Assembly (NCBI GenBank): GCA_002529645.1
Contig: NAEP01000038.1
Coordinates: forward strand, 1 to 43,466
DNA length: 43,466 nt
Direction of reading: 5' to 3'
Source: Candidatus Lumbricidiphila eiseniae
GTDB taxonomy: Bacteria; Actinomycetota; Actinomycetes; Actinomycetales; Microbacteriaceae
Positions 232 to 40,192 of this stretch are shown in pieces (positions within the stretch are counted from its first letter, which is position 1; each line of letters opens with the position of its first letter). The position numbers and the translations under genes are program-made. The notes under the pieces were generated by a model, which had not been told where the DNA came from, did not search any database, and saw only the letters and a program-made list of their open reading frames with translations.

Positions 232-320
232 GCGACCGCTCCACAGCCTGGATCTGACCCGTGACCGTTCTGCTCCCGCCGGTGCGTGGAGGCGACCGCT
301 CCACAGCCTGGATCTGACCC
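232..320. repeat. Spaced direct repeat pair: 29 bp perfect repeat, 31 bp insert
   Basis: A perfect 29-bp repeat (core CTCCACAGCCTGGATCTG) lies at 232-260 and 292-320, a period of exactly 60 bp. The insert at 261-291 is unique, and the bases just outside the repeat differ between copies. Nothing here codes for a protein I can support. It is one of the dispersed repeat-insert-repeat loci of this window. Confidence 0.85.
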
Positions 321-470
321 TTCTGGTCCAGGCACAACACCACCGCGGTGACGGCGCGGGTTCAGATACAGACCAATTCAGGTCATAGACCCTTAACAGT
401 GGATCCGTGGAATTCGATCCGCAACAAAACAAGCCCACCACTTCGCCACCATATGCGACAAGACACCCAC

Positions 471-704
471 ACGCGAAGCAACCTCCACACGCGAAGCAAC
501 CTCCACACGCGAAGCAACCTCCACACGCGAAGCAACCTCCACACGCGAAGCAACCTCCACACGCGAAGCAACCTCCACACGCGAAGCAACCTCCACACGC
601 GAAGCAACCTCCACACGCGAAGCAACCTCCACACGCGAAGCAACCTCCACACGCGAAGCAACCTCCACACGCGAAGCAACCTCCACACGCGAAGCAACCT
701 CCAC
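471..704. repeat. 18-bp tandem repeat array, 13 copies
   Basis: Thirteen head-to-tail copies of an 18-bp unit (ACGCGAAGCAACCTCCAC) start at 471, 489, 507 and so on to 687, with no divergence between copies that I can see. The array ends at 704, where the next unit would begin ACCCGTCA. Such perfect homogeneity means recent expansion or active homogenisation. It is non-coding and lies about 125 bp beyond the 3' end of the tRNA cluster. Confidence 0.95.
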
Positions 705-828
705 ACCCGTCAACCCTTCAGCAGCCGACCGTTGATGTCCCAGTGACTCAGTACAGTCACCACGTGTTCGAGAGGAAATCCCAGGTCAGACCTACAAGAA
801 CCTTGCAAGTGGATGCTACGTGGGGAGG

Positions 829-901
829 TGGCTCCGACCGGCATCGATCCGGTGACCTTTCGAGTTTCAGTCGAACGCTCTACCAACTGAGCTACAGAGC
901 C
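829..901 (-). tRNA. tRNA-Phe (GAA)
   Basis: A minus-strand cloverleaf of 73 nt. The acceptor arms GGCTCTG and CGGAGCC pair, and the anticodon stem TTCGA/TCGAA encloses the loop CTGAAAC, so the anticodon is GAA. The T-arm and discriminator A are present. CCA is not encoded. It is the last gene of the cluster in the direction of transcription. Confidence 0.95.
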
Positions 902-926
902 AGGCATCTATGTTCAATGCCCGACG

Positions 927-957
927 GTAGTAGGCCCCGTTTGCCGGGGCTTACTAC
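927..957. other. Inverted repeat between tRNA-Asp and tRNA-Phe
   Basis: Two 12-nt arms (GTAGTAGGCCCC and GGGGCTTACTAC) pair with one G-T wobble around a loop of about 7 nt, forming a strong hairpin. It lies in the spacer between two co-oriented tRNA genes, so it could act in tRNA precursor processing or as a terminator. There is no T-run after it on either strand, so a classical intrinsic terminator is doubtful. Confidence 0.5.
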
Positions 958-961
958 GCCG

Positions 962-1035
962 CGACCCTGACGGGACTCGAACCCGCGACCTCCGCCGTGA
1001 CAGGGCGGCGCGCTAACCGACTGCGCTACAGGGCC
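962..1035 (-). tRNA. tRNA-Asp (GTC)
   Basis: A 74-nt minus-strand cloverleaf. The acceptor GGCCCTG pairs with CAGGGTC, with one G-T pair. The anticodon stem CCGCC/GGCGG encloses CTGTCAC, giving anticodon GTC. The discriminator G is the expected identity base for tRNA-Asp. CCA is not encoded. Confidence 0.95.
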
Positions 1036-1078
1036 TTGATGGTGCCGAAACACCGACTATGAAATTGTATGTCCTCGG

Positions 1079-1151
1079 TGACCCCAACGGGATTCGAACC
1101 CGTGCTGCCGCCGTGAAAGGGCGGTGTCCTAGGCCTCTAAACGATGGGGCC
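1079..1151 (-). tRNA. tRNA-Glu (TTC)
   Basis: A 73-nt minus-strand cloverleaf. The acceptor GGCCCCA pairs with TGGGGTC, and the anticodon loop CTTTCAC in stem CCGCC/GGCGG gives anticodon TTC. The discriminator is A and CCA is not encoded. It is the first gene of the Glu-Asp-Phe cluster, an arrangement common in actinobacteria. Confidence 0.95.
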
Positions 1152-38214: not shown

Positions 38215-38243
38215 GGCTTAGGATCGGGTCAGGGGTGGGCGGC

Positions 38244-38328
38244 GCGCAGCCGCGCGTAAGAGAGGGGTGCAAAGATATCCCCATAATCTGGGATGCACCG
38301 CCACGCAGCCGCACGCAAGAGAGAGATG
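38244..38328. repeat. Diverged spaced repeat, 26 bp, 59-bp period
   Basis: The 26 bp at 38244-38269 and 38303-38328 match at 21 positions, and the five differences are all transitions. The second copy ends two bases before the DUF1801 start codon and includes its purine-rich ribosome site. So the insertion has given this gene its present leader, or copied it. Confidence 0.7.
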
Positions 38329-38330
38329 TC

Positions 38331-38792
38331 ATGACCACAACCGATAAGACCGCCTCCGATGGTGAATCGGAGGGTTTCACCGCGGAAGAACGTGCGGCAA
38401 TGAGGGAGCGCGCGAAGGAGAACCGCACGGCTGCTCGTCGGGGGTCTCGTGCCGACACCGCTACTGCCACGGCGGAGGTGCTCGCTAAGATTGCCGAGTT
38501 GCCGGACTCAGACCGGGTGCTGGCTGAAAGAGTGCACGCGGTTATTATCGCTGCCGCACCGACCCTGTCTCCAAGGCTCTGGTACGGGATGCCCGGATAT
38601 GCCAAAGACGGTAGAGTGCTCTGCTTCTTCCAGAGCGCCTCGAAGTTCAAGACCCGTTACGCGACACTCGGATTCAACGATGTCGCGGCGCTCGACGAGG
38701 GAGACATGTGGCCCACGGTGTTCGCACTACAGACACTGACCGCCGCCAATGAGGCTCGAATTACGGCCCTCGTGCAGAAGGCAGTCGGCTGA
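38331..38792 (+). CDS. DUF1801-like protein
   Basis: 153 residues from ATG 38331. A Glu/Arg/Lys-rich N-terminal helix is followed by LPDSDRVLAERVHAVIIAAAPTLSPRLWYGMPGYAKDGRVLCFFQSASKFKTRYATLGF, the usual DUF1801 core related to YdhG. The family is small, cytoplasmic and without established function. It is flanked by spaced repeats on both sides. Confidence 0.85.
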   Translation: MTTTDKTASDGESEGFTAEERAAMRERAKENRTAARRGSRADTATATAEVLAKIAELPDSDRVLAERVHAVIIAAAPTLSPRLWYGMPGYAKDGRVLCFFQSASKFKTRYATLGFNDVAALDEGDMWPTVFALQTLTAANEARITALVQKAVG

Positions 38793-38800
38793 TGTGCACG

Positions 38801-38885
38801 CGGAATCCGCACGCGTGGGTGGGGCCACACCGGTAGGGCAGAGCGGGGCGCACTCTCGGAATCCGCACGGGTGGGTGGGGCCACA
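38801..38885. repeat. Spaced direct repeat, 29 bp with one mismatch, 56-bp period
   Basis: Copies at 38801-38829 and 38857-38885 (core GTGGGTGGGGCCACA) differ at one base, and the insert of 27 bp is unique. It is the shortest period in the window. The pair fills the gap between the DUF1801 stop and the acetyltransferase stop. Confidence 0.85.
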
Positions 38886-38893
38886 GGAGGGCG

Positions 38894-39397
38894 TTAGCGC
38901 ACCAACCGCACCTCGTGGATAGATTCACCGAGGAACGGCTGCATTTGTTTGGCTCCATCGGCGCTGAATCCATTGCGACGGTAGAACGCGTGTGCCCGCG
39001 GGTTGTCGGAGGCGACCCAGAGGTACACCGGGTCTGATCCTACGGCAGCGTCAAGTAGTTTTTGACCGATGCCCGTGCCCTGATACGTGTCGAGCAGATA
39101 GATGAAGATGAGCTCGAGCGCCCGTGGGGGATCCTCGTCGCGGGCCGGGCCCGCACCGACAAACCCGACGATATCGCCGTTCACAATTGCCGCGTACTGT
39201 GAGAACTCTGGTCCGCGCGAGGCGAGGTGTGTCCAGAGTTCGGCCATTCGCCGGGCAGAGAGATTTTCAAAAGCTGCCGCACTGATGAGGTGATCGTAGG
39301 TTTGGTGCCAGCACATTGCGTGAACCCGACCCAGCGTTTCCGCGTCGGAGTCCCGAATCGGCCTGACCGTGACATCTGCTGCAACGTCAATGCTCAT
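38894..39397 (-). CDS. GNAT family N-acetyltransferase
   Basis: 167 residues. VRPIRDSDAETLGRVHAMCW is the typical start; the acetyl-CoA segment is IYLLDTYQGTGIGQKLLDAAV, with NPRAHAFYRRNGF near the end. The substrate is unknown. It is convergent with the DUF1801 gene. Confidence 0.92.
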   Translation of the reverse strand: MSIDVAADVTVRPIRDSDAETLGRVHAMCWHQTYDHLISAAAFENLSARRMAELWTHLASRGPEFSQYAAIVNGDIVGFVGAGPARDEDPPRALELIFIYLLDTYQGTGIGQKLLDAAVGSDPVYLWVASDNPRAHAFYRRNGFSADGAKQMQPFLGESIHEVRLVR

Positions 39398-39448
39398 GGG
39401 GGAAGACTAAGCCAGCTTTTGCGTGATGAGAAATTGAGAGTTTCTCGG

Positions 39449-40192
39449 TTATCGCGGGGCGGATAAATTTCGTGACCCGGGCGTTGGTCGGGTCGGGTTA
39501 GGTTCCGGAGGACTCGGTGTGGTTGGCGCGGGGCTCGGTGCGGTGGGCGCGGGTCCCGGGCGGGGTGCAAGATTGGTGATGTGCGTGCGGGGTTCGGTGT
39601 GGTGCGCGCGGAGTCCGGTGTGACGGGCACGGTGCGCTCGAACCTTCTCGCGATTCCCGCACCGCTGCATGGAACACCAGCGTCGATTGGATGCCCGAGA
39701 TGTGTCGAGGTAGATCATGTCACAGTCATCCGCAGAACATTTTTTCACTCGATTCGCATTGCCCGGACCCAACAGCTCAACGGCCTCGCGAGCAATGGAC
39801 GCAAGAACATGAGCAACGGTCTGGATGGAGCGGCCCGCCCGGAGGGTGCCGCCAGTAAGGCGGGGCGGGATATCAGGCACCGCCGCATAGAGATTGATGA
39901 CATCGATATCAGAGCCGTCGAACTCGCGGTGAGCGCTCGCTGCCTGTGCCAGCCTAAAGATGGCACTGCGGAGCCGAATCGCGTCTTCGATGTCACGTTC
40001 CTGAGCGGGCGCTACCTGGGCACCCCAGTGTTCGCTGAGCCAATCGGAGAGAGCGGTTGGAACGGCGGCGCGACTGGCCTCCAGCACGCTGCCAGAGTAC
40101 ATAAAATCAAGAGCTCGGGATCCAGAGTCAAACCACGAGTGCACGTCGTCGGCGTCGCGGTACCACTGTCCGGTGCGTGTGCTGCCGGTCAT
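39449..40192 (-). CDS. CGNR zinc-finger / ABATE-domain putative regulator
   Basis: 247 residues. An N-terminal ABATE-like domain, with SGSRALDFMYSGSV near the start, is followed by the CGNR zinc finger KKCSADDCDMIYLDTSRASNRRWCSMQRCGNREKVRAHRARH. These are predicted transcription factors of actinobacteria with unknown ligands. Homologues stop soon after the AHRAR motif. Here about 55 extra residues follow, rich in Pro, Thr and Arg, encoded by repeated DNA at 39510-39620. It overlaps the SprT-like gene by a few bases. Confidence 0.9.
   Translation of the reverse strand: MTGSTRTGQWYRDADDVHSWFDSGSRALDFMYSGSVLEASRAAVPTALSDWLSEHWGAQVAPAQERDIEDAIRLRSAIFRLAQAASAHREFDGSDIDVINLYAAVPDIPPRLTGGTLRAGRSIQTVAHVLASIAREAVELLGPGNANRVKKCSADDCDMIYLDTSRASNRRWCSMQRCGNREKVRAHRARHTGLRAHHTEPRTHITNLAPRPGPAPTAPSPAPTTPSPPEPNPTRPTPGSRNLSAPR
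39513..39620. repeat. Degenerate repeats in the CGNR gene's 3' end
   Basis: The 30-bp word starting GCGGGGCTCGGTG at 39528 recurs as GCGGGGTTCGGTG at 39587 with several substitutions and a shift, a step of 59-60 bp. A related CTCGGTGTGGTTGGCGCGG lies 21 bp upstream of the first. The pattern mixes spaced and tandem repetition. Confidence 0.5.

What the first reader, a model, noticed from the sequence alone, without database searches (positions are those of the whole stretch)
232..39620. Dispersed repeat-insert-repeat loci with a shared 60-bp geometry but unrelated sequences
About fifteen loci show a 22-33-bp sequence present two to four times, 56-61 bp apart, around unique inserts of about 27-36 bp: 232, 1253, 5403, 7010, 8369, 16686, 16983, 23900, 26087, 26529, 34593, 35966, 37205, 38244, 38801 and weaker ones. 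The repeated word is different each time, so this is not a repeat family, REP or MITE. The insert is not repeated, so it is not tandem duplication either. The simplest reading is insertion of about 32 bp of unique DNA with duplication of about 28 bp of target. Type I-E Cas1-Cas2 does just this when it adds a spacer (28-29-bp repeat, 32-33-bp spacer, 61-bp step), and off-target integration by Cas1-Cas2 has been reported experimentally. If so, this genome carries an abnormally promiscuous spacer-integration activity producing incipient CRISPR-like loci throughout the chromosome. No cas gene is in the window, so another integrase with the same staggered cut is possible.
Basis: partly seen in the sequence, partly recalled or inferred. 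Interest (0 to 1): 0.95.

Follow-up and report, generated by a model that had tools for sequence, protein, structure and literature searches.

The report
Self-DNA CRISPR spacers scattered genome-wide
In the 54% of this bacterium's genome that was read there are 251 short repeat-insert-repeat scars whose spacing peaks at that of its CRISPR array, and about a third of the inserts match other parts of the same genome; they were likely written there by its CRISPR memory-making enzyme (Cas1-Cas2) working away from its proper site, which would mean that CRISPR-like loci are being born all over a natural genome.

Summary
In 1.53 Mb (54%) of the genome I count 251 pairs of near-identical words around an unlike insert; the step peaks at 60-61 bp, repeat 28, insert 33. 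Samples of relatives have 0-5 pairs at 60-62 bp. The genome carries a full set of type I-E cas genes and an array with 28-bp repeats and 33-bp spacers; no other of 60 genus genomes has Cas1. The duplicated words share a core in register with the native repeat. 92 of 251 inserts match another place in the same genome, against 28 of 499 flank pieces. Sources have AA at one end in 35 of 89 cases, as do both native spacer targets in the resident prophage. Paralogues and homologues show empty sites. Best explanation: promiscuous off-target spacer integration by the genome's own Cas1-Cas2, often of self DNA. The kind is known from E. coli overexpression; natural scale and self origin look new. Untested by experiment; the cause of promiscuity is unknown; in the window only 3 of 16 inserts have a strong self source.

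The parts
232..320 (.). repeat 232-260 / insert 261-291 / repeat 292-320, step 60
   Evidence: no self source found for the insert in the whole own genome
1257..1459 (.). four-copy incipient array, step 60 (family D3), inserts 1280-1316, 1340-1372 and a third
   Evidence: insert 1340-1372 has a weak partial match (26 bp, 92%) at C14:51560-51585
5429..5516 (.). repeat 5429-5456 / insert 5457-5488 / identical repeat 5489-5516, step 60, inside a ROK-family ORF (4399-5778, -)
   Evidence: insert is 32/32 identical to L051:1056-1087 (C8:41056-41087) of the same genome; ROK:
7010..7096 (.). old, decayed pair inside tilS (words 60 apart, 7 of 27 mismatches)
   Evidence: the extra residues are absent from the 22 named relatives aligned (22 of the 80 fetched); TilS:
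8369..8453 (.). repeat / insert 8396-8426 / repeat, step 58, between a phosphoribosyltransferase gene and ftsH
   Evidence: no self source; genes
16686..16773 (.). repeat / insert 16713-16746 / repeat, step 61, inside a multi-copy sequence (IS-like by my reading, no family search)
   Evidence: paralogue L015:306-530 crosses the site with one copy of the repeat and no insert
16983..17069 (.). repeat / insert 17010-17042 / repeat, step 60
   Evidence: no self source
23900..23979 (.). repeat / insert 23922-23957 / repeat, step 58, outside the longer ORFs
   Evidence: weak 24-bp partial self match at C45:49694-49716
26087..26164 (.). 17-bp word twice, step 61 (weak)
26529..26622 (.). repeat / insert 26562-26589 / repeat, step 61, downstream of tRNA-Ser
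   Evidence: no self source; weak phage similarity
34602..34744 (.). three-copy incipient array (34602, 34662, 34723); insert 34684-34714
   Evidence: 30 of the insert's 31 bases are identical to L073:13065-13094 (C3:53065-53094) of the same genome
35966..36054 (.). repeat / insert 35994-36026 / repeat, step 61, outside the longer ORFs
   Evidence: insert is 31/33 identical to L039:14063-14095 (C1:54063-54095); source has AA next to its 5' end
37205..37351 (.). three repeats and two inserts (37232-37266, 37292-37324), step 60, in frame inside an alpha/beta-hydrolase (esterase) gene (36800-37573, -)
   Evidence: the 14 homologues aligned lack 35-42 residues here; the emptied frame aligns with 0 gap letters in 6 of 14; family:
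38245..38323 (.). weaker pair, step 59
   Evidence: weak partial self match of the insert
38801..38885 (.). repeat / insert 38830-38856 / repeat, step 56, outside the longer ORFs
   Evidence: (family D13); weak partial self match only

Best explanation
These loci are likely stray spacer integrations by the genome's own type I-E Cas1-Cas2 complex, which is predicted to capture about 33-bp fragments (often of the cell's own chromosome) and to join them across the two strands of a 28-bp site resembling the core of the CRISPR repeat, so that gap repair would duplicate the site. Shown: the 60-61-bp geometry equals that of the native array; the target motif lies in register with the native repeat; many inserts match the genome itself; their sources are enriched for the AA also seen at native protospacers; empty sites exist; Cas1 was found in this genome and in none of the 59 genus relatives searched. 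Inferred: the enzyme, the two staggered strand transfers, the repair, and that the activity is recent or still running (29 of 89 insert-source pairs are identical). Some sites gained more units (up to seven repeats). The products are most likely neutral or harmful by-products rather than working immunity, because they have no conserved flank and repeats unlike the native one (inference).
For: Geometry: d=61 101 and d=60 59 of 201 pairs, then 24 and 16 of 50 in new sequence; native array 70 repeats, 66 of 69 gaps exactly 33 nt. Motif: EM on 97 duplications of 27-29 nt gives YCC.YRCRYR..GGR at positions 7-21; score 649 against 331-360 for five random genomic sets; the native repeat scores 9.4 bits, above the 99.9th percentile (7.1) of random genomic 28-mers; held-out test on 28 of the 50 new pairs (repeat 26-30 nt), Mann-Whitney p=6e-11. 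Self origin: 92 of 251 inserts at E<=1e-4 (70 at <=1e-8), against 28 (12) of 499 flank pieces, 58 (34) of 2000 random 33-mers, and 4 of 251 repeats. AA/TT at the source: 15 of 89 (5'), 21 of 89 (3'), 35 of 89 either, background 3.3-3.5% per side, peaking only at the boundary. Empty sites. Phylogeny: Cas1 in 1 of 60 genus genomes; 2 pairs at 60-62 bp in 400 kb of five cas1-less genus relatives, 173 in 1.139 Mb here. Selection: steps that are a multiple of 3 are enriched in long ORFs (37 of 69 against 54 of 182; Fisher p=7e-4).
Against: No experiment. Eleven other cas1e-bearing family genomes show none in 400 kb, so a normal Cas1e is not enough and the cause of promiscuity is unknown. Repeat-copy divergence and insert-source divergence do not correlate (rho 0.12, p 0.25, n=89). 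Growth polarity in multi-copy loci is not significant (9 against 5, 2 ties). No conserved leader-like flank. In the window only 3 of 16 inserts have a strong self source, and a look through the whole own genome for 12 of the other 13 gave only weak partial matches. 159 of 251 inserts have no source in the sampled 54%. 54 of 89 sources have no AA at either end.
Confidence: 0.92

Rival explanations
1. Another integrase or transposase with a 28-bp staggered cut inserts short self fragments; the CRISPR system is a coincidence.
For: No experiment ties the loci to Cas1-Cas2; the other cas1e genomes sampled lack them. Other integrases in the genome were not searched for.
Against: Insert length equals the native spacer length, duplication equals the native repeat length, the target motif aligns in register with the native repeat, and the AA flank is the one at native protospacers. 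That four-way match would have to be chance.
Confidence: 0.04
2. Ancient 60-bp tandem duplications whose middle part has diverged while the repeat half was kept.
For: A few places are true tandem repeats (window 410-751 and 39493-39632).
Against: Inserts match unrelated places in the genome up to or near the repeat boundary, and paralogues have one repeat and no insert.
Confidence: 0.01
3. The loci are functional small CRISPR arrays, transcribed and processed as immune memory.
For: 25 of 219 loci have three to seven repeats by my grouping (one of them, L267, looks doubtful).
Against: No shared flank, repeats differ from the native one, and many inserts are self sequences, some with the native AA flank, which working guides would make harmful (inference).
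Confidence: 0.03
4. Assembly or chimeric-read artefact.
For: The assembly is in 73 contigs.
Against: Many repeat copies differ from each other, steps divisible by three are favoured inside long ORFs, and loci lie on every larger contig sampled except some stretches.
Confidence: 0.01

Closest known systems
Non-canonical (off-target) spacer integration by type I-E Cas1-Cas2 in E. [quoted passage not shown] 2018; paper not held, its content recalled; passages citing it seen in PMC11788318 and PMC9456107)
   Same: Spacer-sized fragments enter non-array chromosomal sites; as I recall, at sites that resemble the CRISPR locus.
   Different: There the enzyme was overexpressed (PMC11788318 passage); as I recall, only several putative natural cases were named. 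Here hundreds of fixed loci lie in one natural genome, many self-derived, some grown to several units, with no sign of a guiding flank.
Normal type I-E adaptation (E. coli; review PMC10011333, passages)
   Same: Cas1e and Cas2e; 28/33-bp geometry and an AA-type source flank (E. coli values recalled).
   Different: Normal adaptation is leader-directed; the review passage says that in vitro the complex alone also integrates outside the array and that IHF acts as the specificity factor.
[quoted passage not shown]
   Same: Spacer at an unusual place.
   Different: Ectopic there means inside an existing array, not elsewhere in the chromosome.
Casposons (Cas1-solo transposons; PMC4046053, listing and start of abstract only)
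   Same: Cas1-type integrase; target duplication recalled.
   Different: A casposon moves one fixed element with its own genes (recalled); here each insert differs and Cas1 lies in a cas locus.

Membership tests
Off-target type I-E Cas1-Cas2 spacer integration | type I-E cas1 and cas2 in the genome | tested here: met
   Cas1e 390 bits, Cas2e 118 bits, plus Cas3e, Cas8e, Cas7e, Cas5e, Cas6e and Cas11e/Cse2 67 bits
Off-target type I-E Cas1-Cas2 spacer integration | target duplication equal to the native repeat length | tested here: met
   modal 28 nt, 113 of 201 at 27-29; native repeat 28 nt
Off-target type I-E Cas1-Cas2 spacer integration | insert length equal to the native spacer length | tested here: met
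   modal 33 (72 of 201; 53 of 89 with sources); native 33 in 66 of 69 gaps
Off-target type I-E Cas1-Cas2 spacer integration | target resembles the CRISPR repeat | tested here: met
   de novo motif in register with native repeat; held-out p=6e-11, n=28 of 50 new pairs
Off-target type I-E Cas1-Cas2 spacer integration | protospacer-adjacent motif at the source | tested here: met
   AA or TT at the boundary in 35 of 89, so enriched but not universal; native targets: AA at 3 of 4 sites seen, two of the four sites belonging to one spacer
Off-target type I-E Cas1-Cas2 spacer integration | site present without insert in relatives or paralogues | tested here: met
   for the few loci where a comparison existed
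Off-target type I-E Cas1-Cas2 spacer integration | dependence on cas1 and cas2 | not testable with these tools
   needs deletion or expression
Functional CRISPR array | conserved leader beside the first repeat | tested here: not met
   no position of the 18 nt on either side exceeds 0.09 bits, 97 loci
Functional CRISPR array | polarised growth from the leader end | tested here: inconclusive
   9 loci against 5, 2 ties
Functional CRISPR array | transcribed and processed into crRNA | not testable with these tools
   no RNA data
Casposon | one fixed element with its own ends moved by a Cas1-solo (definition recalled) | tested here: not met
   inserts differ from each other and the only Cas1 found lies in a cas locus
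REP / MITE repeat family | same sequence dispersed in many places | tested here: not met
   4 of 251 repeats match elsewhere in the sample at E<=1e-4

The most novel reading that the evidence does not exclude
A natural bacterium whose Cas1-Cas2 has lost both site and self/non-self discrimination and has turned into a genome-wide micro-transposase: it keeps copying 33-bp pieces of its own chromosome into hundreds of repeat-like sites, founding new CRISPR-like loci, some of which grow into arrays of up to seven repeats. This is CRISPR array birth in the wild, a return towards the behaviour expected of the ancestral Cas1 transposase.
Probability: 0.75. Interest if true: 0.93.

Novelty: new variant of a known kind. 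Interest (0 to 1): 0.9.

Why it matters
How CRISPR arrays arise away from existing ones is an open question; as far as I know, off-target integration has been seen mainly when Cas1-Cas2 is overexpressed. This genome offers hundreds of natural events, many with sources and some with empty sites, so target choice, fragment choice, selection against insertions and growth of new arrays can be measured. It also gives a natural Cas1-Cas2 pair that seems to have relaxed specificity, useful for finding what normally keeps the enzyme at the leader, and it suggests that an immune system can act as a mutagen that adds about 1% to a genome (about 470 units of 61 bp, extrapolated).

Tried and rejected
Tandem duplication with a diverged middle: rejected where sources or empty sites exist. 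Repeat family (REP/MITE): rejected (4 of 251 repeats elsewhere). Family-wide trait: not seen in the relatives sampled. A conserved leader flank: none found. Clock test linking repeat and insert divergence: negative. Array polarity: not significant. Cas1 R139L as the cause (E. coli R138 equivalence is recalled): the same L occurs in L165, L168 and L172, and two of those genomes (G289, G191) show no such loci in 40 kb each, so it is not sufficient. Own Cas2 lacks the C-terminal GWSxA motif seen in 12 of 16 family relatives (my count on the alignment), and own Cas1 departs at 16 of 128 columns that are >=95% conserved among its 119 best hits (those hits themselves: median 1, maximum 21); left as leads. 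Phage and plasmid sources for 12 window inserts without a strong self source: six phage records share one similarity (E=0.03) that also covers letters of the neighbouring insert in my joined query; no plasmid. One search flagged 48 entries as having an uninterrupted relative, but most hits lie within the same array; six pairs have a match elsewhere (window_16686, L013_2678, L013_2869, L016_7339, L060_9533, L063_14453), three of them aligned out. The ROK gene comparison was not informative because the best homologues align only after the site. Literature: searches (title lists and starts of abstracts; passages) showed me no report of a natural genome with hundreds of such events; the library lacks most subscription papers, and Nivala 2018 itself is not held, so its natural examples are recalled.
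Full report
WHAT IS THERE. A scan of the window for near-identical words (>=20 bp, <=2 mismatches) found 16 pairs at 55-63 bp, peaking at 60 and 61, and three Markov shuffles found none at any distance. 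The window is contig C19 of a 2.85-Mb, 73-contig genome. After filters (word of 18 with <=2 mismatches, matched segment 20-36 bp, distance 56-64, native array excluded; 2 of 203 candidates dropped as short-period tandems) the first set holds 201 pairs, 101 at 61 bp and 59 at 60 bp; modal repeat 28 bp, modal insert 33 bp. The test set holds 50 pairs, 24 at 61 and 16 at 60. Together: 251 pairs in 219 loci, 25 of them with three or more repeats by my grouping (one, L267, doubtful), the longest seven (L045). Two of the pairs belong to a small second array beside the cas genes (L004, from 5840).

CONTROLS. With the same kind of filter the number of pairs at 60-62 bp was 2 in 400 kb from five genus relatives without Cas1, 0 in 400 kb from eleven cas1e-bearing genomes of the family (20-60 kb each), and 5 (none at 61) in 1.317 Mb of 80 named contigs, nearly all Microbacteriaceae, around tilS. 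The own genome has 173 in the first 1.139 Mb.

THE CRISPR SYSTEM. Contig C67 carries cas1 and cas2 (L003:10312-11241 and 11172-11555, +), a short leader, and an array of 70 repeats ATCCGCCCCGCACATGCGGGGGTGAACC with 66 of 69 gaps exactly 33 nt. On the other side lie cas5e and cas7e, cse2, cas8e, cas3e and cas6e. Cas1 (PF01867) was found in 1 of 60 genus genomes, this one, and cas1e over the cut-off in 17 of 398 family genomes, this one included. In the protein search the best other Cas1 hits listed are at most 60% identical.

TARGET SITES. An orientation-free expectation-maximisation on 97 duplications of 27-29 nt found a core at positions 7-21 (YCC.YRCRYR..GGR). The core of the native repeat, which was not given to the search, fits it at the same positions. 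The score was 649 against 331-360 for five random genomic sets; the native repeat scores 9.4 bits, beyond the 99.9th percentile of random genomic 28-mers. On the test set the 28 of 50 duplications of 26-30 nt scored far above random positions (p=6e-11; 46% above the control's 95th percentile). Flanks showed no motif, so there is no sign of a leader.

INSERTS. 92 of 251 inserts match another place in the sampled 54% of the genome at E<=1e-4 (70 at <=1e-8), against 28 (12) of 499 flank pieces, 58 (34) of 2000 random 33-mers and 4 of 251 repeats. The matches stop at or near the repeat boundaries (for the first 58). Of 89 analysed (3 of the 92 fell to a filter on E-value, gaps and stretch ends), 29 are identical over the whole insert. 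Sources fall in 46 of 81 stretches. Boundaries were set from the repeat copies and motif, not from the source; at the source, AA precedes the insert in 15 of 89 and TT follows in 21 of 89 (35 with either; background 3.3-3.5% each), and other offsets in those scans reach at most 10. Two of 69 native spacers are identical to places in L270 (C11), and both places have AA in the same position; L270 encodes a major head protein, tape measure protein, endolysin-like protein and integrase, so it is a prophage region. A Streptomyces phage relative of one of the two has AA too; a weaker Microbacterium phage match for a third spacer has CA. So the new inserts and the native spacers share an adjacent motif. 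In the window itself 3 of 16 inserts have a strong self source (5457-5488, 34684-34714, 35994-36026); a search of the whole own genome for 12 of the other 13 (39553-39586, the doubtful 39528 locus, was not sent) found only weak partial matches.

EMPTY SITES. At window 16686 a paralogue (L015) runs through the site with one repeat and no insert, ungapped to the emptied site over 225 bp at 88%. At L013 two events about 190 bp apart are both absent from the paralogue L018. In the esterase gene at 36800-37573, 14 genus homologues (those with loci, of 57 genomes with a match, the own one included) lack 35-42 residues around two 60-bp units; after joining the flanks in a script the frame aligns with 0 gap letters in 6, 2 in 6 and 7 in 2 of 14. 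The decayed locus in tilS (7010) is absent from the 22 named relatives aligned, of 80 fetched.

SELECTION. Emptied sites lie in frames of at least 250 codons in 96 of 251 cases against 316 of 400 random positions, and within frames of at least 300 codons steps divisible by three are favoured (37 of 69 against 54 of 182, p=7e-4). This is what inherited insertions filtered by selection would give.

HOW IT MOST LIKELY WORKS. From established knowledge of type I-E adaptation (recalled): Cas1-Cas2 takes up a trimmed fragment from beside a PAM, joins its two 3' ends to opposite strands at the two ends of a repeat, and gap filling duplicates the repeat. The same steps at a chromosomal site with a repeat-like core would give these loci. 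Shown here are the products and their correlates; the reaction is inferred. The AA sits at either end in the motif's orientation, so integration here seems not to be strongly oriented. Native spacers that match a resident prophage with AA suggest that interference is blocked or weak, which would also make self spacers tolerable (inference). Candidate causes of promiscuity are the diverged Cas1, the Cas2 without the usual tail, and the leader, which is duplicated together with the first repeat; none is tested.

AGAINST. The clock test is negative, polarity is not significant, and no other cas1e genome sampled shows the effect. 159 of 251 inserts have no source in hand; part of that is unsampled genome, and part may be old or foreign.

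LITERATURE. Off-target integration on Cas1-Cas2 overexpression is cited in PMC11788318 and non-canonical integration near IHF-like motifs in PMC9456107 (passages); integration outside the array in vitro and IHF as specificity factor in PMC10011333 (passages). The searches listed under Tried and rejected showed me no natural case on this scale.

VERDICT. Observation confirmed and extended; interpretation supported; a new variant of a known kind, notable for natural scale, self origin and the many new loci.

Noticed in passing
L270:13281-13313 and 16797-16829 (C11): Two native CRISPR spacers are identical to a resident prophage and both sites have AA in the PAM position, so interference may be blocked (anti-CRISPR or defect).
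   Followed up: partly
L003:11575-11728: The leader and first repeat of the native array are duplicated as a perfect 77-bp tandem.
   Followed up: no
L003:11172-11555: Cas2 lacks the C-terminal GWSxA motif seen in 12 of 16 family relatives and a histidine kept in 15 of 16.
   Followed up: partly
L015:13794-14343: A 58-bp unit is repeated in perfect tandem over about 550 bp right beside a repeat-insert-repeat pair, as if one such unit had been amplified as a minisatellite.
   Followed up: no
window 410-751: 18-bp tandem array of at least 14 near-perfect units upstream of the tRNA-Phe/Asp/Glu cluster.
   Followed up: no
window 37292-37324: One insert is itself made of 9-bp tandem units (TCGTTCTTG); no source found.
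   Followed up: partly
window 34817-34864: CATCAG microsatellite inside the 3' part of the lgt gene (34737-35735, -).
   Followed up: no
L004, from 5840: Small degenerate second CRISPR-like array upstream of the cas6e-cas3 side; it may itself be a stray locus.
   Followed up: no
own genome as a whole: G+C of 60.5% in the sample against 68-72% in stretches of five genus relatives, and a genome smaller than nearly all of them.
   Followed up: no
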